Source of the DNA: Branchiostoma floridae
Taxonomy: Eukaryota > Chordata > Leptocardii > Amphioxiformes > Branchiostomatidae
DNA length: 64,000 nucleotides
Direction of reading: 5' to 3'
Assembly (NCBI RefSeq): GCF_000003815.2
Contig: NC_049994.1
Coordinates: 15,260,070-15,324,069, forward strand
Shown here: piece by piece, positions 1,465-46,400 of the stretch
How positions within the stretch are numbered: the stretch's first letter is position 1
Layout: the number at the start of each line of letters is the position of its first letter
The notes under the pieces: model-generated
Database searches by the model: none
What the model saw: the letters and a program-made list of their open reading frames with translations, nothing else
Told to the model about the DNA's origin: nothing
Position numbers and translations under genes: made by a program

Positions 1465-2299
1465 GACAGCCCTTTCCTCTCCCTATGGCAAGAAGGACTG
1501 ATTTGGGGCTTTCCACCTTTTCTTCTAACTCATGACGACTTCGGCTACATGACTTTCTACAATAATCTCTCGGGTCTACTGACAACTGAGGAAAATGTAG
1601 TACATTGTATTTTGCTTCTGTACGTCAGTGTTACCACGGCTTCACACCTGCCACATGTGTTGCCATGACAATCAACAGTCACGATTTGCTTGTCACCCAT
1701 TTGATCAAAATGTCAATCCGAGCGAGAATGCTGTGGTGCTGGACACAAACATAGCTCAGGGTTTTGCCCCCTCATAGCAAATACCAATCCCTTTCAATTA
1801 CAAATTGCCACAAGCTTTTCATCCATGTCTTTAGAAACATGTCTGAACGGAGGTGACGCATATAAGGCCACAGCCTGGCGCGCACGTTTCATCCACCCAC
1901 CGTACACGTGGCCTTAAATATATATAAAGTCCTTCTACAGTAATAGTTTCTTTCACCGGACAGCAAACTTACGGAACTCGACGATACCTGTTTCCCTCCT
2001 GTCTACAACTTATCAGCCTTCAAAACAAATGTCCAAAGCTACCTCCGTACACAGTTTCCAACTTTTTAGTTCATTCCATTGAAGAAGACAGAAGCCTTAA
2101 CCTTGTGTGGAGAGCAAGAATACAAATGACTTATAACTATTAAAGTAAAGCCCTAGCCTCATGCATAGCTACGAAGACAGAGAAGCCAGTATGACCAAGA
2201 AGAAGAACTGTCGCAACTGGGCAAATCCGGGAATGAGAGATCAATCGCCTTGTTTGCCAACGAGTCTAAACGTTTTCAGTGACAGAAATGTGCTAAAAT
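1465..2299. other. Intergenic, upstream side of the receptor gene
   Basis: No coding frame with recognisable protein is visible on either strand. An A/T-rich stretch near 1912-1930 could look TATA-like, but nothing ties it to a transcription start. Confidence 0.5.
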
Positions 2300-7255: not shown

Positions 7256-7435
7256 CTACGACATGGGCTCCACGTAGTTTGCCGGCAGCATGCCGCTCTG
7301 TCCGGTACGCTGCACCGTCCCGGTCATCCACCCGTCGTCGATCTTCACGCAGTTGACAATGACGTCACCGTCCATGAAGCTGATCTCGTCGTCCTCAGCG
7401 GCGGTGTAGTCGAACACCGCGCGCATCACGTTTTG
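7256..7435 (-). CDS. neb: Nebulin exon 41: C-terminal SH3 domain and stop
   Basis: Fifty-nine residues and a TAG stop. The SH3 hallmarks are all present: [15 protein letters not shown] (the ALYDY strand and acidic RT loop), the conserved Trp in GWMTGTV, and the closing motif GMLPANYVE. This spacing is that of the nebulin/nebulette/LASP SH3, which binds proline-rich partners at the Z-disc. The acceptor follows CCCGCCCACAG and the exon enters in phase 0. Nothing is missing from the domain. Confidence 0.95.
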
Positions 7436-22400: not shown

Positions 22401-25400
22401 CAACCTCAAACACCACAAGTTCCAAGATCATGCTATACAAGACATATGGAAAAGAATCATGACATGGAATGTCCTCTCTATAAAGTGTTCTCAGTGCACT
22501 ATTTTAACTTCTTTGAAAAGGTAGCGAGACATTCAAGTTTTAATCAAGAAATTGCAAAAGATCAATATACGCAATCAAACATTTTCATTCACAGTGAGGG
22601 TAGAAAAAACATTGAAAATCAGGCAGTATTTGTATTTTTGAAATCCTCTTCATGCTTACAATTAACATGTCATGAGATAATACAACATGATAAACCTATG
22701 AAATGCTGAAAAGGGAACAAACATTATAAAAATCTAACCAAAATCCATGCTTTGGCACAATAGATGGAAATGTCAAAAATCAATCTTTTTGACATCACAA
22801 CATCATGCTACACATCATGTATACACAGCAACAGTTTCAACCCTAATTCACACAACGGCTGAGTCTCCAAGTCTACCTCGCTGGAGATCTTTGTTGCGTT
22901 TCTGATTCTGGCCATGTCCGGTGTGTCCAGGACGGCATTGTACATGTTTATCTTCCTCCCCTTCCTGTACTCATTCTGTGGAGGAAAATGGCGGATTGCC
23001 ATGGCAACAAGTCAGTACAAGAAGAATAGATATGGAATATATACTTTACTTGAAACCCTGGGTGATTTCATGGATGAAAATGACTGAGAAAATGAAGAAT
23101 GGTTTTCCAGGATTTGAGTATGACCCACAAAATGAGATGAAAAACACTGTATCACTTCTACACAATATCATATGGAAATTGACTATCGACTTCAGGCTAA
23201 GTGATACAATAAAACCGGAATAAAGGACAACCATTGGCACAACAGAAGACCAAATCTTTTCTACCATGTCTGTACTTTCATGATGAGAAATCTAGAATCT
23301 AGAACAGTTGCTTTAGATCAACAAAGATGTCCCTGCAACAGTACACAACAAAGGAGACAACTTGACACTCAGGACATGAGACCAACAGACTTACAAAACC
23401 ATATGTCCACATGACAAGCCACAACACTTTCTTGTTGTATGAGCCAATATATATATACAATCCATCAAAACTAATGCAGACTGAAATTTTGCAAGATGTC
23501 AGTAACGCAATTAACAACAGTATTCTGACATTTCCACATCAGTACAGGAATACACCAAATGCCTTGTAACTTTGACACACTGTACAGACTTTTGTCATCT
23601 TTTTTCAAATGATTAGTAAGTCTTGATTCCACAGGACACTACTGGTCTGTAATCTAAACAATTGCCATGTATCTACAACAAAAGAAAGACATAAACAGCT
23701 AACTGAAGGCAACACAAAAACAACTTCACAACAATTGACGTTTCAGCACCATGAACAGCGACACCCACACCACAAGTCTTTACCTCACTACTTAGTTTGG
23801 AAGCTCTTTTGATCCTTTCGTAATCCATAGAGTCCATGATGCCATTGGTACCAGTAAAAGTACCCCTGCCCTTGCTGAAGTCCTTTCTGTACAGGGTCTG
23901 GTCGTGTCAAAATATAGAGACGGTTATTTTCAAAAGCAACTTTCACAACTAGTTGAGCATTGGACCTTCCACTGTCTCCCAAGAGTCAGCAGCTTTACAG
24001 ACCCAATAAACAGGCAGAACTAACAATAGTAAGAATCTCAAGACAAATAACCAGCCATGATTTGCTTTGAGAATACAACACAAGAAATTCAAAACAATAA
24101 CCTAGCAAACGCAATGAAAAAAGGCCCAATACAATAAATTTGACCTTTCTCCTTTTTTTTGAAGACACTAGGCTATACCATTTTCGTCACGGCATTCCAG
24201 TTCAGCATTCCGGTTCAGTCGAACATTTTCTTAATTTATCAAGCTACCATGAAATTGAAGCTCTTAATATGCTAGGCATAAATTACATGTCTTAACATAA
24301 AAGGAATGTATGGGGAGCTCTGTAAGCAAAGGGGGTAGATTAGACTTACAGTTTCATAACAATTAATAAAAACAATATATCCTTGCTAGTTTATGAACTA
24401 GGGTGTTTTAAGGTGTAAATGTTTACTTACTTGCAGCAAATTATGTTTCAGGGAGTAAAGAGCACTTTAAAGAGTAAAAAAAAAGCATCATAAGATTGCA
24501 AATTTTCTTGGCATTGTAGGGGCAGCCGGCCTACATGGCACAGGGTGGTTGTTGATAACTTGCAGCCAATTAATTATCTTTGATGGGGAACACATAAAGC
24601 ATCTTAACGGAGTAACTACTGCATCTTAAAAGTTTTCTTTCTTTGCACAGGCTCATGAAGGGGTAGCCAATAGATAAAGGGCAGGGTGGGGCGTTCGTTG
24701 GAGATACCTTACAGCCAATTACCTTTCAGGGGAGGAAAAAAAAGCATCTTAGATGGGGTAAGGTCATAGAAGAAAGCATCTTAGAATTTAAAAACGTTTC
24801 TTTCTTAGCATTTTGGTTTAAGGAAGGGGCAGCCTGCGTCATAGGGGAGGGGGGCGTAGTTGATAACAGCCAATTATATTTCAGGGGAGTAAAAAAGCAT
24901 CTTACAGGGGGAAAGAAAAAAGCATCTTTGTAACTTTTCTTTCTTGGCATTTTGGTTTAATAATGGGGCAGCGTGAGAGGGGAGGGGGTGTTGTTGATAA
25001 CTATCAGCCAACTATCTTTGAGGGCAGTCAAAGAAGAACAAAAAGCATTATATAAAACTGCGACAAGTTTTCTTTCTGGCACGGGAAGGTCAGCGAGTTC
25101 AATAGGCACGGGGTGGGGGAGGGGGGCAGTGTTGATACCTCGCTCTGTATTTTGGTGTTCCGTCTGATCCTCTCGGCATCAATGTCATCAGTGACCACGT
25201 GTAACTTTCCGACCTTCAACTCTTCATCGCGATACTGGAGCTGATGTTTCCATGGAAATGGGGCATTTTATGGACCGTGATGAAGTTGTAAAATTACTAG
25301 CATTCAATATCCAATAAGAGAAAAGCTTTCAGCATGAAATAATCTATTTTTACCATGTTGCCAGCAAAGCTTCTCTGGACTAAGCAGATGAACATACTTT

Positions 25401-28400
25401 GATAGAGCAGGGCTTATTGATTGGAGCAAGGGCTATTATAAGGGTAAATACAATTTCAAGCAAATTGCTTTTATCTAAAATTTCCTTCATTCCTTTCTTC
25501 AAAAACAGTCTTAACTCTGCTGAACTTTTATGAAAGCTAAACTTTGCTAGGACATTTACAGTACCCAACAAGTCATGAAGACCCTGACTTTAAGGCACAT
25601 TCATGTTCAGGGAAGCACTTTATTTAAAAGTTATGGCAAAAAGCTTAGGGTACTAAACGTTGGCACTGGGGATAGTAGGGTGGGGTTTTCTTGTACCTCG
25701 CTCTGTATTTTGGTGTTCCGTTTGACGCGCGCGGTGTCCAGATCGTCTGTAACTGCTGTCAATCTTCCTGCCTTTAACTCTCGGTCACGATACTGCACCT
25801 AGTCACGTAACCGGGGGAAACGGGAGGGTGGAGATGATCATATGTAATGGAATGATGGGAGGTCACAGTCAGCCATTTTTAGTGTGTCAAAAGTCAATTG
25901 AAAGGTCATTAACAAAAATCCGTGTGGTCCATAATTTTGTATGGTGCCACCTTTTTGAAGTTAATTTGACAAAAACTGTTTTGAAATTCAAAGCATTTTA
26001 GCATTGAAACAATCCTAAAAATCTAACTCTGTGACAGCTGTTTTGCTTGTTAAGAGAGAAAAACGATACAGAAGTATGGTTTGAAGACAGACTGTGATCT
26101 CAGAGAATGGAGAAAAAAGTGGAATAGTGTGGAGAAGACATGACTTTGAACTGTAGTCATCTGATAAAAGAACTAGAAATATTTCAAGTCTGCTGACCTC
26201 ATTTGTTTTTTCAAACAACAGAAATTGGTGGAAATTTTACATTTCCAAGCATTTTCAGATGACGAGTCATCAATTTAAAATGTTTCCCTACCAAAAAATT
26301 ACTGTTAATCCAGTTCAAAGTCATGCAAATCAAGAAAAAAAAGAAGATGGTACAGTGGATTATAGTCAGTGAAATATCAACACATAGCCAGAGCCATTCA
26401 GTTACTTGGATCTTGAATCTGATCTTTAAGAAAAGTTAAAAGTGTCTTTAAGATTATCTGAAAGAAAACCAAGCAATGAAACATGTCTGGCTTAGTGCTA
26501 AGATTGTTGATATTCCATTAGCTATAATGAAGATGAAGAATCAGAAATGCACATGAGAATGAAGCAGAGTCGCAATGGGGTGAACCGGGAGGGTGTGGCT
26601 CTAGGTTGCCATGGCAATGGGAAACTTTGCACTAGGCCAGCAACTTTACAAAAGATATGTCTATGGGGTATTCTTTTACCATACATGTATAGAGCTCTTT
26701 GAAGCAGCTTGGTACATGGGTTGTTTACAAAAAGGAGCTTCAATACTCATTTTAGAGCCATACAGTAGGCCATTATCAGAGTGCTTTTGGGCAGGAAACT
26801 TGCAAAAGGGTAGCAACTTTACTAAAGCTAACTATGGGGTATCTTTACCTTACATGTGTGCTCTTTTAAGCTGTTTACAGAAAGGAGCTTCTAGGTCGCC
26901 ATACAACAGGCCATTACCACTGTGCTTTACAGCTTTAGGGGAGAGGAGATGAATGATTTCCAACCATTATCAGCAGACCATTGCCTTATAAGGGAAGGGG
27001 GCGATTTTCCTGGGGGGGGGGGTCTGTATTTACCTCGCTGAGCATCTTGGTCACCCCCTTGATTCTGTTCATTTCCGGATCGTCCAGGACGTTGGTGTAG
27101 CGGGCTCCAGTCTTCCTGGTCTTCTTGTCCCTGTATTGCAGCTGGGGGGGGGGGGGGGGGGGATTCCACAGGTTTTATGGACATGTCCTTGGTGAAGAGG
27201 TGTCATGCTCATCCGCAGACCAAGAAAGTAGTATCCAGACTTTCTCTGCCATAACAGTTTTGATGGACATGCTCTTGATGGAGAGACATCATGCTTATTC
27301 ACTGACCAAGATGATATAGCGTTTTTCTCACATCCTTTACCTTAGACGACCATTATCAAGAACTTGCCTCCCGAGCATCTTTTTAACCAGAGGGTTTTCA
27401 GAACTGGTTCAACACACATGCTCTTGAGGATGCCACTAGGACGTCATCATAACCACTAAACCAGCATCTCAACACAGCAGTTTGCTGTGATATGCTGATG
27501 GGTACATCATGCTTATCAACAGGCCGGAACAACATCATCCAATCTTCCTCTGCCACACGAATCTACCACAGGCAGTCAAGAATCTGCTCCTTCAGAATAT
27601 TTGTCTCAGGCATTCTTGGTACCATCTAGCAGGCAATGTATTGAGTAAACTACTTAGTATAGACTTTGAGCATTCCTGTAATACTGATCATCAACAATTT
27701 TTTTCTGTGATGCAATAGGATGCTTAAACAGCCTTGTAAGGTCAAAGACCATGTACATTGTACCCTATAACCTCTTTCTCTAGTTCATGTTATGAGATGC
27801 AGATATGACATGGAGGACCAGACATGCTCAAGACATGTTCCATTGTCATCATTACATCTAAAGATTGTATATTTTCAAGAATTCATCATATACCGGTACC
27901 CCTAGCAGTCATGCCTAAAGGTTCATCTATAGCAATGCACTTTAAACTTAATTTATAAGTCTTTATATATAGGTATAGGTAGACTCCACAGTAATTGTCA
28001 TGCTTAATTGCCATAGATTGGAGTCACATTCAACCGAGCTGTACCTGTATATACTTCATTCAGAAACAAGTTAACATGCTATTTCTCCATCTTTTTCAGG
28101 TTTGTAGATTGAACTACGTATGTACCTCACTCTGGAACTTGCCAACGTTCTTCATACGGTTCAGTTCTGGATCGTCCAGAACCGTGGTGTACCGATTCTT
28201 TTCATCAAACTTTCTCACTGCTACCTGAGCCTACGTGTTGTGAGGAAAGGTGCAGATGAGAGAAAGAAAGAAAGAAAGAAATGAAACAAAATGACAGCAA
28301 GACTCAATAAGAAGGAGAAACAGAAAAGCAAGGTAGTTATAGGACAAACAATACAGAAAAGAAATACACAGCTCCTTTAATATATTTGGTTACAAAGTTC

Positions 28401-31400
28401 ACGTCCTCTTCCAAAATGTTTCATATATTGTTTTTGTTTCTCATGTTGTTCAACCTTGCAAGGCAGGGATAACCAACAATTTGTTTATTTGTTTGTGTTT
28501 ACCTCTGATGCATAGGCATTTGCCTCCTTCAGTCTCTTCATCTCTGGATCCTGCTGGATGGTTGTGTACTTGCCACGCCCCTTGCTGGCATCGTCCTTGT
28601 CCTTAATCTCTCCATAGAGAACCTTAGGAATATCCCAACCAGCCATTGTTTGTTTATGTTACAATTCACTAGACATTAGCTGCTGATTAGCCATTGATAC
28701 AAGATCAGGGAAAGCCCATCACATTGTCTGTGCTGACTGGATTCTGCCTCCAAAAGGCACTTAACCATTCTCACGCTATTCATACTAGTATTAAAGCATT
28801 CCAGATGTCAAGAATGACCACCAGACCACAAAGGTACAACCATAGCTACAAGCAGATTCAGTAAGCCCAACCTGTGTTGGTCGATCTTCGACATAAGAGA
28901 CTGTGCCATGCTATTCACAAATAGAATATGTTTATCAAAAAGCTGTACTGCTTTGAGGGGAGGACTACATGTAAGTATGTAGTATATTTAAGGCAAGCAT
29001 CACTTATTGAGGATTTTGACTGCCAATTCCCCAACATGAAACTTTCCCAATCACAAGCAGTTTTCTGAAAACATTATGCCTTCCGACATAATCCAAAGTC
29101 CAACACCTAGACTTGTATTTGATATCAAGTCACACAACATTCCTTGTGGCAGGCATGAATACCTGGCTTTGGAACTTTCCAACTTCCTGGAGGCGCTTGA
29201 GTTCGGGGTCGTCGATGGCGGCATGGTACTTCTGTCCATGTTGCTCCAGGCGAGTGTGGCCATAGTGGATCTATTGAGAAGTGAATTAGGCAGAGGAGAA
29301 AGATATAGACACCGAAAGGGACAGCCAGCAATACAGGTAGGAAAAATAAATGATCAGCCATTCAAAATTAAGAAGAAAGCGTTAAGACTAAAATAATATA
29401 AAAAGAAATGAAGGGAAAAGAAAATAGGCATGCATCTAACAAAGGTTAAAATAGTGCTACCAATAACAGTGTACACATAAGGGTGTTTTGGAAGGTAAGC
29501 TAGGGATAAGGTGCACTACATGTACATGTGTAAAGTTGCTTAAAGGTATACATGGCATGATTTTTCCAATTTTCTAATGTCAATTTTCCTTGAAGAGCAC
29601 AAATCTTGCCTTGTATACTTTTATTGTGAGCAAACTGAAAGAAAAGCATTACAGGCAGGCAGAAAGGTTTCAACATAAACAAAACAGAGAGAAGAGAGAT
29701 AGAAAGGAACAACAAAGAGCAACAGGTGTCCAGCAAGTGGTGTGTAAGAAGATGGGAAACAGTACACAGATAGATAGAAGGCATGAGATGCATCAGAGCA
29801 AAGAAAAAAACACCAGAGAGACATGGTGGAAGAGAAAGGTTTAGGTTCTGGGAGCAGTTGGAAGGATGGAAGAGGAGAAAGCTTCTTCGAAGGAAGAGAC
29901 AGTGGTCTACTGTAGCTTTGGTTTGGTTTGGTTAGCTAGGCGGATCCTACGACTACAAAGTAAGCTTCTTCTACGAAGGGAAGGGACCTCGTCTACTCTT
30001 GTAAGGCTTCCCTAACTGTTTAGTACTGTTAGTGGATAGTTTCGAGGTCCATGTACCTGACAGTAAGTGAGCGCCTCAGGGTCTGCCATAGTGCACACCG
30101 TCCACGTTGGCTGCCTATATCTTGTTGCCTCCACGACCTTATTATTGTTATTGTTCCCATTCAAAGCCGCTAGGTCCTCATCGAGGGTGCGCACTATCCC
30201 CCGCATCGATTGCTCGTGGAGTTCGATAAGACGGCGCACCATGTCCTGGGTCATGGGGGTGTCATCATCCTCCTCCTGACCCCCATCCCTGAGCGCCTCA
30301 GGGGGAGTGTCCGAGCGGCGACTCGTAACCGACACCCCTGGTTTCTCATCTTTCACCGCCCCTGCTGACTTCAAACCCACCTGCTCTATCGTCTGTTTCA
30401 CCTCTTCTACCTGCTCTTTAGTCTCTACGACATCCCCACCCTTATATATAACCTCCAGCTCCGCCTTTCCAGCAGAGTCGGCCCCTCTTAACTCCTCTCC
30501 GGACAGGCTAAAACCTACCTTCTTCTTCCCACGGTATTTAGGCGCCCCTTTACTACTGCTTGTACCCTCAGTATAGGATGGGATCTCTGGTTCACGATGC
30601 TTACCAGAGGCAACATCTTCGTAGAATTTGGCCATGCTTTCAATATCTAGGGACCACTGAGGTTCCTCAAACTGTGTGCTTTCTGATACCCTATCCCCGA
30701 AAGAGCTCTCAAAAACTTGCCTTTGGTATTCAGCCTGAGCGGTAACTTTGGACAGAGTCAGGGCCCGCTGTGTCTCTGGATCATAAAGGACTGTTGTGTA
30801 GCTACCTTTAGTTTCCTTAAACCTCTTTTCATAGTTAACAAAGCTGTCTAGACGCGAGATCTCGATAACGCGGCTGTTCTCGGAGTTGAACAGCAGGGTC
30901 CTGTAGTTGCTGGTTTCGATGATGAGCTCTTCTTCGAATGCAACTAAGTTGTCAACCCTGGTCAGGTCTATGAGACGTAGGACCACCTTGTTTGTGGCAC
31001 GTTTGACAATGGTCTCAAAGCTTTCCACGTAATCGTTGCGGAAATCCTTCTGTGATGAGATTGAAGACAAGTTCATGGCCTTCTTTGTGGCTGGGTCGTA
31101 CAAAACTGCAACATGAGGCCCAACCTGGTGCGTGAACGCTTCCTTGTACTTGTCAAGGTGCTGGATTTTGGATATTTCCATCACATGCCGTGTTTCTGGG
31201 TCATACAAGATGGCATTGTAGTTCGCCTTTGCGATGTCATAGTCCTCGTGGTATCGGGTGACACCGATAGCCTGGGACATTTCGATTACCCTTAGGATGG
31301 ACATGTCTATGCTGGCGGAGTACGCAGCCCGACCCTCCATTGTTTGAGGGTAGTCTTTGCGATACCTAACCGAGCTCTGAACCTGGGTCAGGTCAAGAGC

Positions 31401-34400
31401 CCGCTGCGTTTCTGGATCAAAGAGGATCGTCGAGTATTTCCCCCTGCCCTTCTGGTGCTCTTCCTGGTACTTTGAAAGGCTCAGGATCCTCGAGAGTTCG
31501 ACCACACGTTTGGTTTCTGGGTCATACATAACGGTGGTGTACTTGTCCTTATCCCTGAGGAACTCCTCCTGGTACTTTATCACACTCTGAACATTTGAGA
31601 TGTCGATGAGTCTCAACAGCTCTTTGTCACCGTATGTAGAGATGTGAGGCCTTCCTTCGAATGTAATCGGGAAGTCCTTCTTATACCCAATCTGTGACTC
31701 TGTCTTTGACAGCTCAATGCATCTCCTAGTCTCAGGATCGTAGATGATGGTTGCGTAGTGTCCTTTCTCTTTCTCGAAGTTCTTCTTATAGTTGACGTAG
31801 CTCTGTATTCTGGTCAGCTCAAGGACCCTCTGCGTCTCAGGATCATACATACAGGTGGTGTAGTCGCCCTTAGACAAGTCATACTCTTTCTGGTATTGTA
31901 TCAAACTCTGTAGTTTAGTGAGCTCGATGATGCGCAGCGTCTCCTTGTCGTCAGGAATGGGGATGTAGGCTGCCCTGCCTTCAAACTCTTGTGGGAAGTC
32001 CCTCCTGTATAAGAGAGTGCTCTGAACTCGGGAGGCTTCTTGTGCATGGCGGGAGTCGATGCTGTCAGTTGCCAGAGTGTACTGTCCCTTCTCTTGCTCA
32101 AACTGCTCGTGGTACTTGAACACACTCTGCATCTTTTGCATCTCAATCACCCGTTGCGTTTCAGGATCGTAGAGAACAGTTTGGTACTGACCAACATTCC
32201 TCTTGTACTCATCCTCGTATTTGACCAGACTCTGGACTGCTGACAGTTCAATGACTCTCTGTGTCTCTGGATCAAAGAGCACTGTTGTGTATTTGCCCTT
32301 GTCCTTCTTGAACTCCTCATGATACTGTGCCAAGCTCTGAAGCTTGCTCACGTCAACGAGACGGAGGATTTCCTTATCAGCCTCATCAGCGCCCTTTCCA
32401 CCGCGGCCTTCCATGCCAACAGGGAAATCCTTCTGGTACTGAATCTGACTCTGCAGTTTCGTAGACTCTACCGCTGTCTTGGTACGGGGGTCCCACAAGA
32501 CAGTTGTGTAATTTCCCTTATCACGATAGAACTGCTCCTGATAGTTTATCAGGCTCTGGACTCTGGAAATCTCAAGGAGTCTCTTGGTTTCCGGGTCGAA
32601 CAGGATAGTGGTGTAACCACCCCTTCCCTTCTCATACTCAGAGCGATACTCGGCCAGGCTGTGCAGTTTGGACATCTCAACAAGCCTGACCATTTCCTTG
32701 TCTGTTGTGGATGAAGTGTAGCCAGGCCTTTGTTGATACTCCAGCGGATAGTCTCTCCTGTACTCGAACGTGCTCTGGAGATGAGTGACATCGGTGGCTC
32801 TACGAGTCTCCACATCGTCCGTAATCTGCATGATGTTGCCCTTTCCTTTTTCGAAGTCCTCGTGGTACTTGAAGGCGCTCTGGATTTCAGACATCTCCAT
32901 AAGGCGTTGTGTCTCAGGATCAAACATAATGGTGGTGTACTGACCCTTCGATCTCCTGTAGTCCTCTTCATATTTGATCAGGCTCTGGATGGAGCTAACC
33001 TCCACAACCCTCTTAGTCTCTGGGTCGTAAAGGACAGTGGTATAGTTGCCCTTGCCTCTCTGGAACTCCTCTTGATACTTCGACAAGCTCTGGAGCTTGC
33101 TGATGTCCACAAGACGCAGGACCTCCTTGTCCTGGTCGTCTATCACACCAGCATCTCTTCCTTCCATGGCAACTGGGAAGTCCTTTTGGTATTCCAGCTG
33201 GCTCTGAGTTTTGGATAACTCTACCACCCGCTTGGTCTCAGGATCGTACAGAACGGTGGTGTAGTTGCCCTTCTGTTGTTGGAACTGTTCTTGGTATTTC
33301 ACCAGGCTCTGTACGTTTGAGAGCTCCATGGTTCTCCTTGTTTCTGGATCAAACAGAATCGTGGTGTAACCGCCTCTTTCCTTCTCGTATCTCTCGTGAT
33401 AGTTGATCAGGCTGTGAAGCTTGGTCATGTTCACCATCCTGACCACCTCTTTTTCGTCGGCAACAGGAGTGTACTGTGGCAGCTGTGCCCGAGCTTCCTT
33501 CCCGTACTCAACTGTACTCTGGAAGTGGGACACCTCCTCTGCCCGTTTTGTCTGAACATCATCTGGTATCTGTGAGTAGATGCTCTTGCCCCTCTCAAAG
33601 TCCTCCTGGTATTTGAAAGCGCTCTGGATTTCAGAAAGCTCCAAAAGACGCTTGGTCTCTGGATCGAACATGACAGTTGTGTACTGTCCCTTATTTTTTT
33701 TGTACTCATCTTCGTACTTGACCGCGCTCTGAATTGAGGACAGTTCAACCACCCTTTGAGTCTCGGGATCGTAAAGAATGGTGGTGTATTTTCCTTTGCC
33801 CTGCTCAAACTCTTCCTGGTACTTGAGGATGCTGTGGAGTTGAGACATGTCCACAAGACGGAGGATTTCTTTGTCAGCCTCTGCACCTGACTGTGCAGCC
33901 CTACCCTCCTTGAAGTCCTTCTGATACTCGACCTGGCTCTGAATCTTGCCAACTTCGATGGCACGTTTAGTCTCAGGATCGAAGAGAACAGTCGTGAAGC
34001 TGCCCTTTTCCTTCTGGAACTGTTCCTGGTATTTGATCAAGCTCTGGATTTTGGACAGCTCAATCAGACGTTTGGTTTCAGGATCGAACATCACAGTGGT
34101 GTAAGCACCCTTTTCATCTTCATACTCCTTGTTGTACCGGATGAGACTGTGGATTTTCTGAAGGTTCACAACTCTCAGCAGCTCTTTGTCATCAGGGATC
34201 GTTGTGTAGCCCGATCTACCTTCGTAACGAAGCGGGTAGTCTTTCGGGTACACCACTGAGCTTTGGACCTTAGTTATCCCTGTCTGCCTCCTTGTCTCAA
34301 CATCGTCAACAACCGATGTGTATTGGCCCTTTTCTTTTTCATACTGCTCATGGTAATGAACATCGCTCTGCTTGCTGGACAGGTCAATGAACCTCTGAGT

Positions 34401-37400
34401 TTCGGGATCATACAGCACAGTTGTGTATCCACCCTTTTCACTCTCAAACTCTTCCTTATATTTGAGGAGACTTTGCACCTTTGACAGTTCCAGAACACGC
34501 TTGGTCTCAGGATCGAATAGGACAGTGGTAAACTTGCCAATGTCATCCTTGTGCTGTTCTTGGTATTTGATCAAACTTTGCAGTTTTGTAACATCCACAA
34601 TTCTCAAAGTTTCCTTGTCGGCAGCCAACGACTGGTACTCTGGACGACCTTCGAACTTGGACGGGAAGTCTTTCTGATATTCGCTCATGCTCTGCCACTT
34701 AGAAACAGACCTAAGACGTTCAGATTCAGGATCATCTGTTACAGTTCTGTAACTACCCTTCATCTCATGATACGCCTTCTGGTATTCAACATTGCTCTGT
34801 ATCTTTCCAACCTCCTGAACACGTTCGGTCTCCGGATCGAACAATATGGTGGTGTATTTTCCCTTGTTCTTTTCGAATTCCTCCTGGTATTTGTTGATAC
34901 TCTGGATTGAGGAGAGTTCCACAACTCGCCTGGTTTCTGGATCATACAGGACAGTGGTGAAGTCTCCTTTGTCCTTTTCATACTCTTCGTGGTACTTCAC
35001 AACACTGTGCAGCTGCGACATTTCTATCACTCTCAACATCTCTTTGTCAGGGACCATTGTGTAGAAGGCCTTCAGTTTCTGATATTCTTTCTGATATTCT
35101 GTCTCGCTGGCAAACTTGCCAACATCCTTGAGTCTCTTGCTGTCAATGTCATCAGCAACAGAGTGGTACTTGCCCTTCTCTTTCTCATACTCGTCATGGT
35201 AAGATACTAAGCTCTGTATCTTTGACAGCTCTGTGAAACGCTGGGTCTCAGGATCATACAAGATGGTGGTAAACTGGTCCTTGTCCTTCTGATACTCCTT
35301 CTGATAGGCAATTGCGCTCTGGATACTGGACAGTTCAACCACCCTCTTGGTCTCGGGATCAAAGAGGATCGTCGTGTACTTGCCCTTGTCTTTCTCAAAC
35401 TCTTCCTGATACTTCAGCAAGCTGTGAAGCTGAGACATCTCCACCACTCTGACTGTCTCCTTGTCTGCAACAGGAGTGTACCCTGTCCTTCCTTCAAACT
35501 CTTGAGGGAAATCCTTTTGGTACTCCAGCTGGCTCTGATACTTCCCAACATCCTTCGCTCTCTTGGTCTGCACATCCTCTTCCACAGAGGTGTACTTTCC
35601 TCGTAGTCCACGGAACTCCTTCTGATATTCTACATCGCTCTGCCACTTTCCAACCTCCTTGTATCGCTTGCTTTCAGGATCGAACAACACTGTGATGTAA
35701 TTGCCCTTGTTTTTCTCAAACTCCTCGTGATATTGCACTGCACTTTGTAGCTTGGAAAGCTCAACCACACGTTTGGTTTCTGGATCAAATAGAATGGTGG
35801 TGTACTTTCCTTTCTCCTTATTGTACTCATCAGTGTAGTGCAGGAGGCTCTGAAGTTTGTTGACCTCGACGATTCGCATGTGCTCCTTGTCATCAGGAGC
35901 TGAGTGATAGATGCCTCTCTCTTCCAACCACTTCCTGACATACTCATACTGGCTCTGGTGGCGGGACACCTCCCTGATCCTCTCAGACACAGGATCGTCA
36001 GTGACCAGCTGGTACTGACCCTTGTCTCTTTCAAACTGTAGATGGTACTCATTTAAGCTCTGAAGCTTCGACATCTCCATCGTGCGGGAGGTCTCTGGAT
36101 CGAACATTACAGTCGTGTACTTGTCTTTGTTTGCTTGGTATTTCTTCTCATATTGGATGACGCTCTGAATGCTTGAAAGCTCCACGACACGCTTAGTCTC
36201 GGGATCGAACAGAACGGTTGTGAACCTGTCCTTGTCTTTCTCGAATTGCTCCCGATACTTGATGAGGTTGTGGAGCTGGGACATCTCGACCACGCGGATG
36301 GTTTCCTTGTCGGTTACGGGGGTGTATCCTGCCCTCTCTGTCATCTGTTGCGGGAAGTCCTTTTGGTATTCAAGCTGACTTTGCAGTTTGCCAGCCTCCG
36401 TTGCATGTTTGGTCGCAACTGTGTCTGCAGTGGCTGTGTACTTGCCACGGAGGTCTTTGAACTCTTTCTGATACTCCACATCACTGGCGAGTTTGCCCAC
36501 TTCCTTGTATCGCTGAGACTCGGGGTCAAACAAGACAGTGATGTAGTTGCCCTTGTTCTTCTCAAACTCTTGCTGATAGTAATTCATGCTCTGAAGCTTG
36601 GACAGCTCGACAACTCGCTTTGTTTCCGGATCGAACAGTACGGTGGTGAACTGGCCCTTCTCTTTCTCAAATGTCTCGTGATACTGCACAAGACTGTGCA
36701 GCTTGTTCATCTCCACAACACGCACTTGCTCTCGGTCATCAGCGACCATTGTGTATTGCCCCTTCTTTCTGCGATGTTCCCTTTCATACTCATACGGACT
36801 CTGGTACTTTGTTGTCTCCTTGACTCTCTGAGTATTGGGATCATCCGCCACGGCAGTATACTTTCTCCTCCTTTCCCATTCCATCGGGTGGTCAACAGGA
36901 TACTCCACCGAGCTCGCCAATTTACCAACTTCCTTGGCATGCGTTGCTCTCATCTCATCAGTCGTTGTGGTGTACAGTCCCTTCTTCTCGTGATAGTCTT
37001 TCTCGTATTCTACCCTGCTCTGCATTTTGGACATATCTGATGCATGCACAGTCTGAACATCATCTGCAACCATCTGGTAGCCTTCTCTTCCTGTCATCTG
37101 CTCTGGGAAGTCCTTCTTGTACTTCACCTGGCTGTACATGTGCTTCATCCCAAGCTGCCTCTCCATCTCCTTGTCATAATCCAGCCATGCCGTGTACCAG
37201 CCGAGACCCCGTTCCTCGAGGAACGTGCGCTGGTACTCATACTGGCTCTGCAACTTGGTCATCTCCTGCACTCTCCTCGTCTGTGGATCGTCTCCCACCA
37301 TGGTGTACTTATCCTTTGACGCCTCGTAGTCTTTCTCGTACTCGATCCTGCTCTGCATCTTCCCAACATCCTTCATCCTCATGCTCTCTGGGTCATCAGT

Positions 37401-40400
37401 CACCAACGTGTACTTTGACTTCCCTTCTTTTCCCTTCTCGTAGTACTTGATCAAGCTTTGGATCTCAGATGCCTCCTTTGCATGTTTTAGCCCGGATGCA
37501 TCAACAATGGTCGTGTAACCAGACCTTCGCTCCATGTTTTCAGGGAAGTCTTTCTTGTACACGTTTGAACTGAGGTATTCTGCTGTCTCTTTTGCATGCT
37601 TTATGAACGGGTCATCCGCAATGGAGGTGAAGATTCCAGTTCCCCTCTTCTCACGGTACATTCTCTGGTACTCAAAGTCGCTGACCATCTTTGAAACATT
37701 CTTAACTCTCTCTGTGTTGGGGTCATCAAGAGCAATGGTGTATGCCTGTTTTCTCTCATGTGCTGCTGCCTTGTAAATTGTATCACTGGCTAGCCTTGTC
37801 GAGTCCTTCACCCTCTCTGTAACAGGGTCGTCAACAACTGCAGTGAAACTTCCACGTCGTTGCAGAGCCCTCTTCTTGTACTCCAGTTCACTCTGATACC
37901 TGTTGACCTCCTTGACACGCTGTGCTTCCGGAGTGTCAACGACCGCGGTAAAGCTTCCGCGCCGTGTACGGAAGTTCTTGGTGTAAGCTAGCTCGTTCGA
38001 AACCTTTCCAGACTCCTGAGCGTGCTTTGTGGCGGCATCATCCGTGATGGCAGTGAAGCTGCCCCTTCTCTGGCGGAAGTTGCGCTGGTATTCAACATCA
38101 CTCTGGAACTGGTACACCTCTTTGGCCCTTTCGGTTGTGGGATCGGCTTCAACAGACGTGTAACCACCACGCTTTTCCAACTCCATTGGGAAGTCCTTGG
38201 TGTAGCCCTGTTGGCTTCCCAACTTGGACACGTCTTTGACGTGCTGAAGATTTTTGTCATCGGCAATCATGGTGAAGATACCAGTACCCTTCTTCTCACG
38301 ATACAGCCTCTCATACTCCAGTTGGCTTTGCAGCCTTTGGCTATCCTTTGCTTGCACTGTTGCAACATCATCAGTGACTGACTGATAGATCTCTCTCCTA
38401 GGCTTGTCCTTCTTCTGGTACTCGATACCACTAGAGAGCTTGGTAACATCTTTGACTCTCAGAGTTTCCGGATCGTCCGCAACAGCTGTGTAGTCCAACC
38501 TTCCTTCCAGGGTCATTGGATGGTCTTTTTGATATTCGACCTGGCTATGAAGCTTGCCAACCTCCTTCATTCGTTTGGACTCCATGTCATCGGTGACAGT
38601 CTGGTAAATCTCCCTTCTTGGCTTGTCTTTCCTTTCATATTCTATCTCGCTAGCCATCATGGTAACATCCTTGACTCTGCGGGTCTCTGGGTCATCAGCA
38701 ATTGAGGTGTAATCGAGACGACCCTCCAGTGTCATTGGATGATCTTTTTGATACTCAATTTGGCTGTGCAGTTTACCAACTTCTCTCATCCTGTTCGATT
38801 CCATATCGTCTGTGACCGTTTGGTAAATTTCTCTCCTGGGCTTGTCTTTCCTTTCATATTCAATTCCACTGGCCATGATAGTCATATCCTTAACTCTGCG
38901 GGTTTCAGGGTCATCTGCAACAGCTGTGTAGTCCAACCTGCCTTCAAGAGTCATCGGATGGTCTCTCTGGTACTCTATCTGGCTTTGAAGATGCCCAACT
39001 TCTTTCATTCTCTTTGATTCCATATCATCAGTCACTGTTTGGTAAACCTCTCTCCGCGGCTTGTCTTTCCTTTCATATTCGATTCCACTGGCCATCATTG
39101 TAACATCCTTAACCCTGCGTGTCTCTGGGTCATCGGCAATTGAGGTGTAATCGAGACGGCCCTCAAGTGTCATAGGATGATCTTTCTGGTACTCGATTTG
39201 GCTGTGAAGCTTTCCAACTTCTTTCATTCTGTTTGACTCCATATCATCTGTTACCGTTTGGTAAATTTCTCTTCTTGGTTTATCTTTCCTTTGATATTCA
39301 ACGCCACTGGCCATCAGTGTCATATCCTTGACACGGAGAGTCTCGGGATCATCTGCAACAGCCGTGTAGTCAAGACGACCCTCGAGGGTCATCGGATGGT
39401 CCTTCTGATATTCGACCTGGCTGTGTAGTTTCCCAACCTCCTTCATCCTCTTAGACTCCATGTCATCGGTGACTGTTTGGTACACTTCTCTCCTTGGCTT
39501 GTCCTTTCTCTCATACTCAACCCCACTAGCCATGATGGTCATATCTTTGACACGGCGAGTTTCAGGGTCATCTGCAACAGCTGTGTAGTCCAGCCTACCT
39601 TCAAGAGTCATTGGATGGTCTCTCTGGTATTCTATCTGGCTTTGCATATGCCCAACTTCTTTCATCCTCTTAGCCTCCACATCGTCTGTCACAGTTTGGT
39701 AAACCTCCCTGCGCGGTTTGTCTTTCCTTTGGTATTCATACCCGCTGGCCATCTTAGTCACATCTTTCACACGAAGAGTTTCGGGGTCGTCCGAGACCGC
39801 AGTGTAGTCATGCCTTCCCTCAAATGTCATTGGGTGGTCTTTCTGGTATTCAAGTTGGCTGTGCAACTTGCCCACTTCTTTCATTCTCTTTCCCTCAGGG
39901 TCATCTGTGACGGTTTGATACACCTCCCGTCTGGGCTTGTCTTTGCGTACGTACTCAACTCCGCTCGACAACTTGGTCACGTCTTTCACGCGAAGAGTTT
40001 CGGGGTCGTCAGATACTGCTTGGTAGTCTCTTCTTCCCTCAAAGCCCATGGGGTGGTCTTTCTGGTATTCAATCTGGCTTTGCAGGTGCCCTACCTCCTT
40101 CAGTCTCTGACTGTCCTTAGCGTCAGTGATAGTTTGATAGTACTGTCTCCTCTCTTTGTCTGGCTTCTGGTATTCAATCTCACTCTGCATCTTGCCCACA
40201 TCTTTGACTCTGACTCCTTCAGGGGTGTCAGCAACTGTCTTGTAGATGTCTTTCTCCTTGTGGTACCTTGATTCATACTCTACCTTGCTGGCAAGGTGAG
40301 TAGCTTCCTTGGCACGGATCGTGTTTGGATCATCATGCACGGATTGGTAGTCCTTCCTCCTCTCAAAGTCCATGGGGTAGTCTTTTTGGTACTCCAGTTG

Positions 40401-43400
40401 GGACTGAAGAGTTTTCATGCGCCTTATGCGTTCCTGCTCAGGGGTGTCAAGCTCTATATACCCGACATGTCCTAGCACTTCTTGCTTATACCGTTTCTCG
40501 TACTCAAGCTGACTGGACATTTTGTAGGCATCTTTGGCATGCTTAGAGCTTGGGTCTTCTTCCACTGAGGTGTATGCATGTCGTTTTTCCATGGCCAAGG
40601 GGTGATCTTTGACGTAGGAAACAGAGCTCTGCATCCTGGCAGCGTCTTTTTGTGTCTCAAGCTGCAGCTCATCAGTGATGGCTGTGTACCGGTCCTTCGT
40701 TTGTTTAGCCCTTTTCTGATATTCCAGTTCACTGCTGATGTGGGTTACCTCCTGAGCACGCTTTGTCACGGTGTCGTCCGGCGTGCTTTGGTACTTGAGT
40801 CGCCAGGTCATGTCTTTTGGGTGGTCGCGTGGATACTCCACAGTGCTCTGCTCGTGAGTTTGCTTCTTCTGCCCGATCATCCACCTGTCGACAACAGCCA
40901 CCATGCCTGGCTTGGCTTCCAGGTACCTGGGATAATCTCTGTAGCGGACGTCGCTCTGCATTCTGGCGAGCTCTGCACGACGCCTTGCCTCTGCCTCATC
41001 AGGGAGGCCGCCCTGGTAGCGCCACATCCTGTCTTTGGCTTCCTTCTCATACTCAGCCCGACTGAGCAGCTTGGTGACCTCCTGTGCCTTTTGCAGGAAG
41101 GGGTCAACCACAACTTGGTAGGTGTCTTGCGGAACCGCCCTGTACTCCTCGAAACCCTCCTGGGAGAGGATGTTCTGGGCCAGGTTTGTCAGCCTCCTTT
41201 CTGAGGAGTGCTCGCGATGAACAGCAGGGCTGCGGTCTCTGAACCTCCTTGCAACTGGTGGCGGCTCTCTTCCCCGTGGACGGTCTGCCACAGGGGGTCC
41301 TGGGGAGGGCGACCTACGGGTTCGGCGCATGGGGGATATCGGTTCAGCAGGAGAGCTTGGCGGTGTTGGAGGCCAGGAGCGAGGTTGACGGCGCACAGGC
41401 GTCGGATCCCTCCTGATGGTCTTCAGCTTCATTCTCTCTCCTCTGATCTGCACCTCCCGTTCGTACATCTCCACACATTTCGAGACTGAAGCCATCCAGT
41501 CTTCACCTTCTTCCCCTTCGGGGGGAGGTGGGGGGCGAGACGGTGGGGCTGTAGTTACCGGAGAGGCAGGAGGAGAGGGAGTGGGCGGGGCGGGCGCGGG
41601 AGGCGGCGGGCGCGGTGGCGGCGGCCTCTCTGGTGTCCCTTCGTCATCCGACGACATCGATCTTCGGAAACTGTCGGAGCGAATCCTTCTACGCATCCGT
41701 CTGGGGCTTGGTGGAGGAAGCAATTTAGCCTCTGCGGCCTTTTCGAACAGTTCCTTCTTGGTGCTTACGCCTGCTGCGATTTGTATCTCTTCCCTCTCTT
41801 CTGTCTCAGAGCTGCTCCAACGACCCTGTGAGAACTGCTGGAACATCTCTCGCTTCTGGATCATTTCATGGGAGGGCGTAGGCGGCCTGATAGGAATCAC
41901 GCGCTCTCTCTCTTCTCCCTCTTGCCTGACAAACTGGCCGACGGCGACTTTTTCGAACAGCTCTGCCTTCTGGCCAACATCCTGTCTAGGAGGAGGGGGC
42001 CGCTCTGGGGTTTCTTCTTCACTACCACTCCTTCCCCTTTCGAAGAGCTCTCTCTTTCTCACCACATCTTGCTGAGTTATCATCTGAAGAGCCTCTTCAG
42101 TTTCAGAGTTGGTTCTCCTCCACGACTGCCCGACTTTTTCGAACAGCTCTGCCTTTTGGCCAACATCCTGTCTCGGAGGAGGGGGCCTTTCTGGGGTTTC
42201 TTCTTCACTTCCACTCCTTCCCCTTTCGAAGAGCTCTCTCTTTCTCACCACATCTTGCTGAGTTATCATCTGGAGAGCCTCTTCAGTTTCAGAGTCGGTC
42301 CTCCTCCAAGACTGCCCAACATTTTCAAAGATCTCCTTCTTCTGACCGACATCAAACCTTGGAGGAGGTGGTCTCTCGGGCGCTTCTCCACCTTCGTCAG
42401 AGTCCATGTATCGACTGGCCCAATGGCCTTCGGCAACTTTCTCAAAGAGCTGTTTCTTCTGGCCGATGTCCTGGCGTGCCACTTGGATCTCTTCCCTCTC
42501 CGCCATCCTAACCTCGCTCACTCCTCTCTCGAAGGCCTCCTTCTTCTCACCAACTTCTTGGCGTGTAATTTGAGTTGGTTCTCTCTCATAATCCTCGGCA
42601 TCGCTGGCTCCCCGCTCGAACATTTCCTTCATTTGTCCGACTTCATGCCGGGTTACATGCCTTCGCTGCCTCAGCTCTTCTGCTCGGGCCATCTCAAACA
42701 TCGATTTTGCATCCCTGGCACTGAGAGTAGGACTCTCATCTAGCTCAGGAGGCACTGCCTGTTGTACGGTGAACTTGTACTTGTGCCCACTGCCATACTT
42801 CCTCTCATGAGCTTTGTAGATGACTTTCTGTTGCTGCACCAACATGCGGGATGTCTCTGCCGATATCTTCATGATACTCTGCTCGATCAAAGGGGGCACT
42901 TGGACCCTGAGACAGGACTCCTTAGCCACACGATCTGGAGATATTTCTTTAAGGAGGATGTAGACGTATCTAGTGTCTTCACTCACATCTTCCTGTGTTT
43001 TCACTTCCGTAATTGCTGGCCAACGAAGTTGCGACCAGGCATATGCTGTAAGTCGGTTTGGTTTGTCCTTCTTACCGAAACGGATCTTAATACGGAGCAC
43101 TCTTTCCCTGGACCCCCTTGGGAGTTGGATCTTCACGGTTTCGGTCCGACGTGCCACAACGATCTTGGGTTGGCTTTCCACCTTCTTTGTAACGCCTGTA
43201 TGGACAGCTTTTGCCGCCCTGACGCTAGTAACATGGCTAGCTCTTTCTTGGCTCATTGCAGAACTAGTGGCATGACTAGATCTTTCTTGAGTCATTGCAG
43301 ATGTAGAGACATGGCTAGCTCTTTCTTGACTCATTGAAGAAGAACTGACATGACTAGCTCTTTGTTCACTCTGTGAAGATGTAGTCACACGACTAGATCT

Positions 43401-46400
43401 TTGTTCACTCATCGCAGACGTGGTAACTTGGCTAGATCTTTCCTCACTCAGGGCATTAGTGGTTTTGATGGTGTGTTTCACTCCGCCACGAGACTTGGAC
43501 ACACCTTTGAGGGAAATACCCCTCAGTGTCCCTGGTTCTTGTTTTATGGTCACTTGGCCGATCTCCACTGGCAACGGAGGGATAGGTGGAGGGGGTTCTA
43601 CCTCCATTGCTGCACCAACCGCTTGTTGTACGGTGGTTGAAGCCTTCGCTTTCTTCTCCATCTCCATTGCTCTCATTCCCTGAGTGGGCTCAACGGTTGT
43701 TACGCCGCCTGACGTGGTCTTCTTTTTCTTCTGCATCTCTAAGGCCTGCATGGATTCCTCTGCCTCTCTCTTTGTTGTTACAGTTTGCTTACCATCTGAC
43801 CGGCTGGTTTCAGATTTAGCTCTTGCCTGAGACGCTTCAGCGTGGGATGTTTCCTCAGACTCTTGCTTTGAGACCACCTTGCCGTCGGAGGTCACAACTT
43901 CCCTGATGGTTTGCTTTGTGGAGGACCTCACTTCACGGACGCTTTCCTCATACTGGTATGAGCTGTATGACCCAGTTTTTACCAGCCTTCCTCCTGATAC
44001 ATGTTCTTGCTGAGGACTGCTGGATTTCTCCTCAATAGGCGGAGGAGTGCCAGGGTTGTGTGGATGTGGATTGCCAGGGTTGTGTGGATGTGGATTGCCA
44101 GTTTTGTGGCCTGGATTTCCTGCAAAAGGATGAGGGTTTCCAACCTCTTCTTCATCAAGCTCATCTGGATTGGTGAACACCGACGATGTACGTTGGCTAG
44201 GTTTCTCGACACGGACGGGAACATCTCTTACAACGTCTTCCGTTAAGGTTTCATATGAAGGAGGACTGGGGAAGTCCGGTTCCATGGGTGTTTCTGGAAC
44301 TTCGGGTTCCACTGCCTCCATGAGTGCATCCGGTACCACAGGGCTTGGAGCCTGTTCCATATAAGGTGGGGTGGGGACATCTGGCCGTCCCGTAGCTTCT
44401 GCAGGGCTGGGGAAGGCAGGCTCTACGAAGACGTCTTCTTCCATCGGAGAAGGTGGCCTCTCCAGAGGAACAGCTTCTTCTCCAGGAGATGTTGCTCTGG
44501 GAGAAACAGGTCTTTCCTCTGGAGTTGCCTCCTTGCTAGGAGATACTCCCCTGTGCTCATCAGGGGACACCTTTTCAGGAGGTGGACTGGGGAGGTCAAA
44601 GTCAATCAGAGCATCTTCGGCTTCCTCATACTCTGCAGGTTGTTCCTCTTCAGGCTCCTCGACAACAGGAGTTCGAATTGGTTCTAAAGGAGCGTCTGTA
44701 GACAAAGGCAGCTCTGTGAACTGCTCTGAGGGGCCCTCTTCTGCCTCCATGGCTTGTTCTATCCCCGTGTCTTCAACCGTAGGGCTTGGTGCCATCTCAA
44801 TGATGGGTCCTTCTGGTTCCTTCGGTTGAGTTTCCTCCTCAAAGACATCTTGCTGAGGAGGGCTGTCTTCTGGAGGAGTTACCTCAATGGATGGACTTTC
44901 TTGAGGTGGTTCTTCTTCTTGAGCTTCTCCTGGTGGAGGACTATCATCTCCTTGACCTTGATCTTGTGCACCTTCTGTGCCAAAGGCACCATTACCTTCT
45001 GCCTGATCTGCATTGTCAGATTCAGTATCTTCCTGACCAGGGTTTTGCTCTGGGTTGTATGCAGCAGGGGTTTCATGTTCACCAGGCTGGGCGTTACCGT
45101 TACCATCATTCTCATCATCACTACTGCCATTGTTGTTGTTGTTATTACAGTTAACAAGGGCAAGCCGTGAGCAGCCAGTAAGCACCCACATCGCGCCCTG
45201 TTGGTACGGCGCGGATTCCTGACTATCGAATTTAGGATGGCTCATAATTTATCGATTTTAGGAATGCCTACGCTGGACACTATGCGAACCCTGAGGCGCT
45301 CAGGTACTAGGTCTGATGGACCCGTTAGTTTGGGCTGCGCAAGGCTTTCCTCAAACACTCCTCAACTGTAAAAAAACAGTGTAATTGGCATATGGGCCAA
45401 GATCTCTGTGCTTCGGAATACTCATAAAGCGTCTATGTACGAGAAACGAATGGCAGCCGTTTTGCTGAAGAAAGGTCGACTGCTCTTCAGAAAATGAATG
45501 AAAAAAGAAACCAGGAATGACTAATGTCTTTTTCTAAGTGATTATCTGCACTGTGTTTTGTATGGTGTCTTATGTTGGAACAGTATTCACCAATTTTACA
45601 ACATGGAATTTTCAAATAGATAACCACTTAGAGAATGACATTTCAGAAAAAGATCAAACAGAGAGTAAGGCACCAATGTATAGAGAAAAGGAAGACTTAA
45701 AATGAATAAAAGGATAGATTATGATTCGGAAGAGTAGAGAGATATGTTGGGGATATAACGTTGATCCCGAAAACTGTGTAGTTCATCTTTCCATTGCAGG
45801 TGACCAGGTCTGTGATCTATTAGAGCACCCAGTGATATCCACACTCTGGCAAGCTTTTTAATAGTAGGTTTGTGCTAAAGATTTTGTACAGTACCTGGCT
45901 CTGAATCTTACTGACGCTCCTTATCCGGTTGTGTTCGGGGTTATCGGCTGTGTAACTGAACTTCCCTGCCAAAGCCTTGTAACCCTTCTGGTATTCGTTC
46001 TATGGAGAAAAGAAGAGGGACAGAAGGAAAGAGTCAAAGAAAGGAAGAGAACAGAAATGCAAAGGAAAACATTAAGCAGAAGGTTGCAAAGAATAGAATC
46101 AAGAGGTAAAAGTTAGAACATAGAGAATAGTAGAACAGATAAATTTGTAGAAAAGAGAAAAAACAGTTTGAAGTAACAGTGCCAATATACAAGTGTACAA
46201 GAGGAGAGAGCTTGATGTTCACATGTGTCCTGTACAGCTGATGTCTCTCTTTATATCTAAGATCATCTATATATAAGTATATCAAGGATATATAAGGGTT
46301 ATGGAATGACTCAGTACAAAAGTCATGATACTATATTGGATGAAGAGTCACCACATGACTTGGACCAATGCAGTGATGACTGCTACCCATTCAACATATC

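What the first reader, a model, noticed from the sequence alone, without database searches (positions are those of the whole stretch)
30735..41057. Super-repeat period changes along one array: 2, then 8 (4+4), then 7 (4+3), then 3 modules
Using modules with the DKE..R[VLI][VI][ED] core as markers, they fall at modules 40, 44, 48, 52, 56, 60, 64, 67, 71, 74, 78, 81, 85, 88, 91, 94. Steps are six fours, then alternating 3 and 4, then threes. The four-unit is DKE, FDPET, FDPET, DD; the three-unit lacks DD. Vertebrate nebulin has seven-module super-repeats matching the tropomyosin period. Here a seven seems to arise by loss of one DD module from an eight.
Basis: partly seen in the sequence, partly recalled or inferred. 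Interest (0 to 1): 0.85.

Follow-up and report, generated by a model that had tools for sequence, protein, structure and literature searches.

The report
Giant nebulin exon with changing super-repeats
An animal muscle-protein gene of the nebulin family holds one huge uninterrupted coding block of 97 similar nebulin-type modules whose larger repeating unit shifts from 2 to 8 to 7 to 3 modules along its length, probably a frozen record of how the protein was built.

Summary
One open frame, 45248-30012 (-), holds 97 nebulin-type modules (reader: 96). Self-similarity confirms period 2 (m10-25), 8 over 4 (m41-64), 7 (m65-88), 3 (m86-97). Modules at equal positions group in a tree. Seven from eight is supported: three-units lie with the odd ('A') half of the eight, and their last module is a fusion of a third module with the end of a lost fourth in 4 of 5 tested. 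The parallel to tropomyosin is not supported: a fifth to a quarter of the array has period 7, and the GxG[WFYI] motif is absent there. The same gene has ordinary seven-module super-repeats in small exons. New: giant-frame copies are near saturation at synonymous sites yet alike in protein, so the array is old and held by selection. Only 3 of 97 modules keep S[DE]xxY[KR]. An own ATG and stop, and flanking exons that join perfectly without it, suggest a separate transcript unit inside a nebulin intron (unproven; no RNA data; fair donors in the tail argue against).

The parts
30012..45248 (-). Giant open frame of 5078 aa; likely CDS 45245-30012 (ATG to TAG, 5077 aa)
   Evidence: codon-usage signal from about 45060 to about 30190 only
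41124..45245 (-). Non-module N-terminal part: P/E-rich stretch, 13-aa repeats, and a repeated QDVxxKxELFE motif (by eye); no Pfam family at E<=0.1
38388..40139 (-). m10-m25: two-module super-repeat (35+38 aa), 8 copies
36756..38387 (-). m26-m40: no clear super-repeat; GTGIF at m27 and m33, GLGW at m37, resembling the vertebrate WLKGIGW motif
   Evidence: vertebrate motif from PMC7109182
34209..36755 (-). m41-m64: three 8-module units, each A4+B4
31968..34208 (-). m65-m85: three 7-module units, each A3+B4
30696..31967 (-). m86-m97: four 3-module units
30012..30695 (-). Non-module C-terminal tail to the stop codon TAG (30014-30012)
45365..45366 (-). Candidate splice acceptor (TTTTTTTACAG before 45365) upstream of the ATG; in the giant frame it leads to a stop after four codons
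29620..29625 (-). Poly-A-like AATAAA after the stop codon (weak: about 0.5 per kb on this strand nearby)
45895..45999 (-). Nearest upstream small nebulin exon, phase 0, ends ..QSQ
29163..29270 (-). Nearest downstream small nebulin exon, phase 0, begins I-H-Y-G-H
21825..29270 (-). Nine small-exon nebulin modules of the C-terminal side
7256..7430 (-). SH3-like stretch with stop codon, the expected end of the nebulin chain (found by a pattern; family resemblance recalled; not scored by a profile)

Best explanation
The giant frame is an old, uninterrupted expansion of nebulin modules of the C-terminal (Z-disc side) type. A unit a-b-c-d was doubled into A4+B4 (eight). In the A half the d module was lost by a one-module in-frame deletion that fused the front of c to the back of d, giving A3+B4 (seven), which was copied; a tail of three-units follows. 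Since then the array has been static: module sequences are kept by strong purifying selection while silent sites have nearly randomised. The protein most likely lies along a filament as a series of modules, as nebulin does (about 5.5 nm per module, about 530 nm for 97), but without a fixed tropomyosin register and with an altered contact core. It probably is made from its own transcript unit inside a nebulin intron (I give this step about 0.55, lowered from 0.6 after re-reading). Shown: periods, positional classes, near-saturation of silent sites, core changes, gene context. Supported but not proven: the A/B relation and the fusion. Inferred: direction eight to seven, filament binding, separate transcript.
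For: Periods. DNA tree of 14 of 16 units: even four-units U2,4,6,8,10,12 against U1,3,5,7,9,11,13,14, support 87/91; protein tree: three-units U7,9,11,13 together 87/89 (U15 and U16 left out as too diverged). Fusion: m74, m81, m88, m91 are c-like on the left (3.7-4.2 against 1.5-2.0 for A-type d) and d(A)-like in the following linker (3.1-3.6 against 0.2-0.9 for c), spacing 38, 38, 37, 37, as after d(A) (37, 37, 38), not 35 as after c. Silent sites: codon identity at same-residue sites 0.467 against 0.386 expected (m10-25, lag 2), 0.510 against 0.420 (lag 7), 0.467 against 0.420 (lag 8), with protein identity of 82, 58 and 57.5%. Contrast: neighbouring small-exon super-repeat modules 0.78 against 0.56, 0.68 against 0.53, 0.60 against 0.43 in three module types, two pairs identical in 25 of 25 codons. 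Best small-exon match lies in the nine C-terminal modules for 53 of 97 giant modules among 222 small-exon rows, 54 of 97 among the 181 stronger rows (first count). Flanking exons phase 0, split in the SxxxY core; ATG after in-frame stops, own stop, acceptor of median strength at 45365.
Against: Unit U5 is a mosaic: its a module (m57) is nearest to the B modules m45 and m53 (63 and 66%), and the protein tree puts U5 on the B side; the even group has only 58/58 there, the three-units only 50/87 in the DNA tree, and the AU test leaves the odd clade open (p 0.18 and 0.23). m67 shows the fusion only in part (linker 1.9 d against 2.1 c, spacing 35); m94, the last but one three-unit end, has spacing 35 and was not tested by segments; three of six B-type d modules are also followed by 38, so the long linker is not exclusive to A. 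d modules do not form one clade (3 changes). Codon identity is a little above expectation also for a lag-1 control in m41-97 (0.458 against 0.420). Two donors in phase 0 at 30519 and 30381 (9.9 bits by a recalled human-like matrix, against 4.0 and 4.2 for the flanking exons' donors; but 4.8 and 4.9 by the gene's own matrix, under its 10th percentile of 6.7) would allow splicing to nebulin's C-terminal exons, and an acceptor-like site in phase 0 at 43370 (7.1 bits, 10th percentile 6.3) would allow entry within the frame. The first and last some 180 nt of the frame lack codon-usage signal. AATAAA occurs about 0.5 times per kb here. Core: S[DE] in 12 of 97, Y[KR] in 14 of 97, both in 3 of 97, so actin binding like nebulin's is unproven.
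Confidence: 0.58

Rival explanations
1. The giant frame is an ordinary internal exon of the nebulin chain, spliced between the upstream modules and the C-terminal modules.
For: It lies on the same strand between nebulin exons, is closest to the C-terminal modules, and has two phase-0 donors in its tail that beat the flanking exons' donors by a recalled matrix and an internal phase-0 acceptor-like site at 43370.
Against: In-frame stops precede the ATG, and the acceptor at 45365 leads to a stop after four codons; the phase-0 site at 45464 also meets those stops. About 1370 aa without modules and a tail would break the array, while skipping it joins QSQ to IHYGH perfectly. Codon-usage signal continues past both donors to about 30190.
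Confidence: 0.37
2. The seven-module stretch was selected to match the tropomyosin-troponin repeat of seven actins.
For: Lag 7 dominates in m65-88; in vertebrates the seven-module super-repeat spans 38.5 nm (PMC7109182, passages).
Against: Periods 2, 8 and 3 in the same chain do not fit seven; no GxG[WFYI] motif in m38-97; seven is reached by fusing c and d, which mere history explains.
Confidence: 0.12
3. The periods are a recent by-product of DNA slippage or gene conversion in one long exon, without function.
For: A 186-bp repeat in the N-terminal part is 92% alike in DNA, so recent tandem copying does occur in this frame.
Against: Module copies are near silent-site saturation with conserved protein, in contrast to the recently copied central super-repeats.
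Confidence: 0.07
4. Three-units are ancestral and d was inserted into them to give four-units.
For: Direction is not shown by an outgroup species; d modules resemble the general modules m1-m40 and do not form one clade.
Against: Last modules of three-units are c/d fusions in 4 of 5 tested, which a deletion explains in one step; d is present in both A and B units.
Confidence: 0.15

Closest known systems
Vertebrate nebulin (NEB) central super-repeats
   Same: About 35-aa modules of PF00880, higher-order repeats; modules bind actin 1:1 in the mouse filament structure as told in PMC9140763 (passages)
   Different: NEB has a uniform seven-module unit with one WLKGIGW motif (PMC7109182, passages) coded by several exons per unit (chicken, PMC1553488, passages); here one intron-free frame with periods 2, 8, 7, 3 and a mostly changed SDxxYK core
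Vertebrate nebulin C-terminal linker and simple repeats (M163-M183)
   Same: Lie between super-repeats and SH3; giant modules are closest to this gene's own C-terminal modules; not compared with vertebrate sequence
   Different: NEB's are described as not organised into super-repeats and number 21, not 97
Amphioxus nebulin gene (Hanashima et al. 2009, Gene 443:76; seen only as a reference; not held)
   Same: Probably this gene, if the genome is Branchiostoma floridae (recalled from assembly size; no call names it)
   Different: What that paper says of the giant frame is unknown to me

Membership tests
Nebulin repeat family (PF00880) | Profile match over the curated cut-off | tested here: met
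   225, 238 and 140 bits against 20.1 in the three array pieces
Nebulin repeat family (PF00880) | SDxxYK actin-binding core | tested here: not met
   S...Y in 90 of 97, but S[DE] 12 of 97, Y[KR] 14 of 97, both 3 of 97. Small exons of the same gene: S[DE] at 113 of 146 exon ends and xxY[KR] at 71 of 149 exon starts that the script could read (it kept only ends with S, A, G or N and starts with Y or F in place; in 153-184 kb Y[KR] is 17 of 50). Vertebrate modules were not counted.
Nebulin (long ruler protein) | Seven-module super-repeats | tested here: inconclusive
   Giant frame: only m65-88. Small exons of the same gene: lag 7 highest in 153-184 kb; complete cycles of seven types at about 86.8-89.6 kb, one or more types unmatched elsewhere in 79-113 kb
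Nebulin (long ruler protein) | WLKGIGW-like motif once per super-repeat | tested here: not met
   GxG[WFYI] in the frame only at m27, m33 and m37
Nebulin (long ruler protein) | C-terminal SH3 domain on the same chain | tested here: inconclusive
   SH3-like exon at about 7420 (-) (pattern only); whether the giant frame is spliced to it is unknown
Nebulin (long ruler protein) | Lies along thin filaments | not testable with these tools
   No protein or RNA data
Nested gene or alternative first coding exon | Own start, stop and transcript ends | tested here: inconclusive
   ATG after in-frame stops, TAG, acceptor, AATAAA; fair donors in the tail; no RNA data

The most novel reading that the evidence does not exclude
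A second nebulin-like giant protein, coded in one exon nested inside an intron of the nebulin gene itself, with its own ancient super-repeat system (2, 8, 7, 3), an altered contact core and no tropomyosin register: a second filament ruler for another muscle or another filament zone, built independently of the canonical seven-module ruler.
Probability: 0.28. Interest if true: 0.75.

Novelty: new variant of a known kind. Interest (0 to 1): 0.55.

Why it matters
Nebulin's seven-module unit is usually explained by the tropomyosin period. Here the same gene has both that ordinary system and a second array whose unit changes length, with the join where eight seems to have become seven still readable. 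It lets one ask directly whether the number of modules per unit is set by filament register or by duplication history, and its near-saturated silent sites suggest that uneven super-repeats can be kept by selection for a long time.

Tried and rejected
Recent homogenisation by slippage or gene conversion: opposed by the codon test. Nei-Gojobori pS of 0.76-0.83 first suggested avoidance of silent identity; the codon permutation test showed identity near or a little above expectation, so that idea was dropped. A whole-genome DNA search with 30800-36900 found only the query's own place. PDB searches with one stretch and with a 36-module profile (36 of 97 modules given) found no nebulin chain (the weak gp41 and other hits are taken as chance). 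Pfam side hits such as PGM1_C or DUF4585 on the array pieces, some over their cut-offs, are taken as chance on repetitive sequence. No Rfam family reached its threshold and ARAGORN found no tRNA in the window. Structure prediction was not run: a module array without actin would say little. Papers on the amphioxus and Ciona nebulin genes are not held. Searches showed none that describes this frame; others listed only 20 of 60, 20 of 609 and 10 of 79 papers, and I saw listings plus passages of PMC12198301, PMC9140763, PMC7109182, PMC1553488 and PMC3305314 only.
Full report
What was claimed.

The array. The minus strand holds one open frame, 45248-30012, of 5078 aa. A position-specific profile with dynamic programming gives 97 modules (script repaired), spaced 34-38 aa. 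Pfam Nebulin matches far over its cut-off. The literal marker pattern fits 11 of 16.

Periods. Lag analysis with 5000 shuffles of module order per region and a sliding window give 2, then a stretch without clear period, then 8 with 4 inside it, then 7, then 3. In a tree of all 97 modules the classes a, b, c, d need 1, 2, 4 and 3 changes, against shuffled means of 14.7, 14.7, 14.8 and 8.6, with 0 of 500 shuffles as low for each; 24 modules outside the classes are not counted. With 35 columns many forks are unresolved. Nearest neighbours share the class in 54 of 57 modules.

Seven from eight. Units were compared over their a, b and c modules. Three-units U7, U9 and U11 are on average closer to odd units, and four-units U8, U10 and U12 closer to even ones. 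The DNA tree of 14 of 16 units (U15 and U16 left out) separates U2,4,6,8,10,12 from the rest with 87/91, and holds the three-units together with only 50/87. The protein tree groups U7, U9, U11 and U13 with 87/89, gives the even group only 58/58, and places U5 with B. U5 is a mosaic: its a module is B-like. So I read the eight as A4+B4 and the seven as A3+B4. The third module of the A3 units has a c-type front; in m74, m81, m88 and m91 the linker after it is of the kind that follows an A-type d module, with 37-38 aa spacing; m67 is intermediate, and m94 (spacing 35) was not tested by segments. Three of six B-type d modules also have a 38-aa spacing after them, so the linker is not exclusive to A. 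This is what deletion of one module's length between matching points of c and d would leave. Direction rests on this and on d being present in both A and B; no other species could be consulted.

Age and selection. At sites with the same residue, codon identity between copies is only a little above what codon usage gives: 0.467 against 0.386 (m10-25, lag 2), 0.467 against 0.420 (m41-64, lag 8), 0.510 against 0.420 (m65-88, lag 7); controls at lag 1 are 0.424 against 0.423 (m10-25) and 0.458 against 0.420 (m41-97). Protein identity is 82, 57.5 and 58%. So silent sites are near saturation and protein is conserved. In the small-exon super-repeats of the same gene, neighbours share 0.78 (expected 0.56), 0.68 (0.53) and 0.60 (0.43) of codons in three module types, and two pairs are identical in 25 of 25 codons compared: some of those were copied recently, the giant array was not.

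Gene context. The window is G000:C16:15260070-15324069 in a 513-Mb assembly; that this is Branchiostoma floridae is recalled from its size. Nebulin modules in small exons lie on both sides on the same strand: nine at 21.9-29.2 kb, 20 at 45.9-63.4 kb, and many more up to about 195 kb in window coordinates, with runs of N. Upstream there are canonical seven-module super-repeats: in 153-184 kb lag 7 is highest (2.03, 0 of 500 shuffles; lag 6 is also raised, as some weak modules are missed). In 79-113 kb my profile misses weak modules, so its raw lag peaks at 5-6; patterns made by eye show complete cycles of seven types at about 86.8-89.6 kb and cycles with one or more unmatched types elsewhere. 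An SH3-like stretch with a stop codon is at about 7420 (-). The giant modules resemble the nine C-terminal modules most: best match there for 53 of 97 among 222 rows, 54 of 97 among the 181 stronger rows. So the giant array looks like an independent expansion of C-terminal-type modules, and its seven is not the canonical seven.

Part of nebulin or a separate unit? Small exons have phase-0 introns inside the SxxxY core. The exon before (45999-45895..QSQ) and the exon after (29270-29163, IHYGH..) would join to a perfect core if the giant frame were skipped. The frame has stops before its ATG (45245), an acceptor of median strength at 45365 that leads to a stop in this frame, its own TAG, and an AATAAA at 29625, which is weak evidence at about 0.5 per kb. 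Against this, two phase-0 donors lie in the tail; by a recalled human-like matrix they beat the donors of the two flanking exons (9.9 against 4.0 and 4.2 bits), by the gene's own matrix they fall under its 10th percentile; and a phase-0 acceptor-like site lies at 43370. I give about 0.55 to a separate transcript unit or alternative first coding exon (0.6 before I weighed the donor comparison again).

Contact core. S and Y of the core stay in 90 of 97 modules, but S[DE] is in 12 and Y[KR] in 14, both in 3; in small exons S[DE] ends 113 of 146 and xxY[KR] starts 71 of 149 that could be read, a partial reading that rests on simple splice patterns and on a filter for the core itself. If the solved vertebrate contact (PMC9140763, passages) holds here, binding by the giant array should differ.

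Tropomyosin. Seven modules span 38.5 nm in vertebrates (PMC7109182, passages), hence 5.5 nm per module. An 8-unit would slip by one actin per unit, and the 24 modules m41-64 make 3.4 tropomyosins. Periods 2, 8 and 3 together with a GxG[WFYI] motif at m27, m33 and m37 only speak against a fixed register in most of the array.

Known or new. Expansion of nebulin by seven-module units is in print (PMC1553488, passages), as is nebulin in Branchiostoma floridae (PMC3305314, passages; Hanashima 2009 as a reference only). I found no description of the giant frame or of its periods in searches (listings, partly capped), but the most relevant papers are not held.

Noticed in passing
G000:C3:34181024-34204585 (loci L015, L016, L023): Small-exon nebulin super-repeats near the end of another contig, much like those flanking the 18-kb N run of C16 (window coordinates 129992-148339): perhaps a misplaced piece of the same gene, or a segmental copy.
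   Followed up: partly
window 41945-42340 (-): A 186-bp repeat, 92% alike, in the non-module N-terminal part with a QDVxxKxELFE motif; recent, unlike the module array; no Pfam family.
   Followed up: no
window 133-1482 (-): A 449-aa open frame matching the rhodopsin-type 7-transmembrane receptor family (PF00001, 118 bits), beyond nebulin's SH3-like exon.
   Followed up: no
window coordinates 79-114 kb (loci L006-L008): Central super-repeat modules of which two neighbouring pairs are identical in 25 of 25 codons: recent tandem duplication or assembly duplication.
   Followed up: partly
window 13842-14067: A tandem array of a 40-bp unit, 5.7 copies, 93% alike.
   Followed up: no
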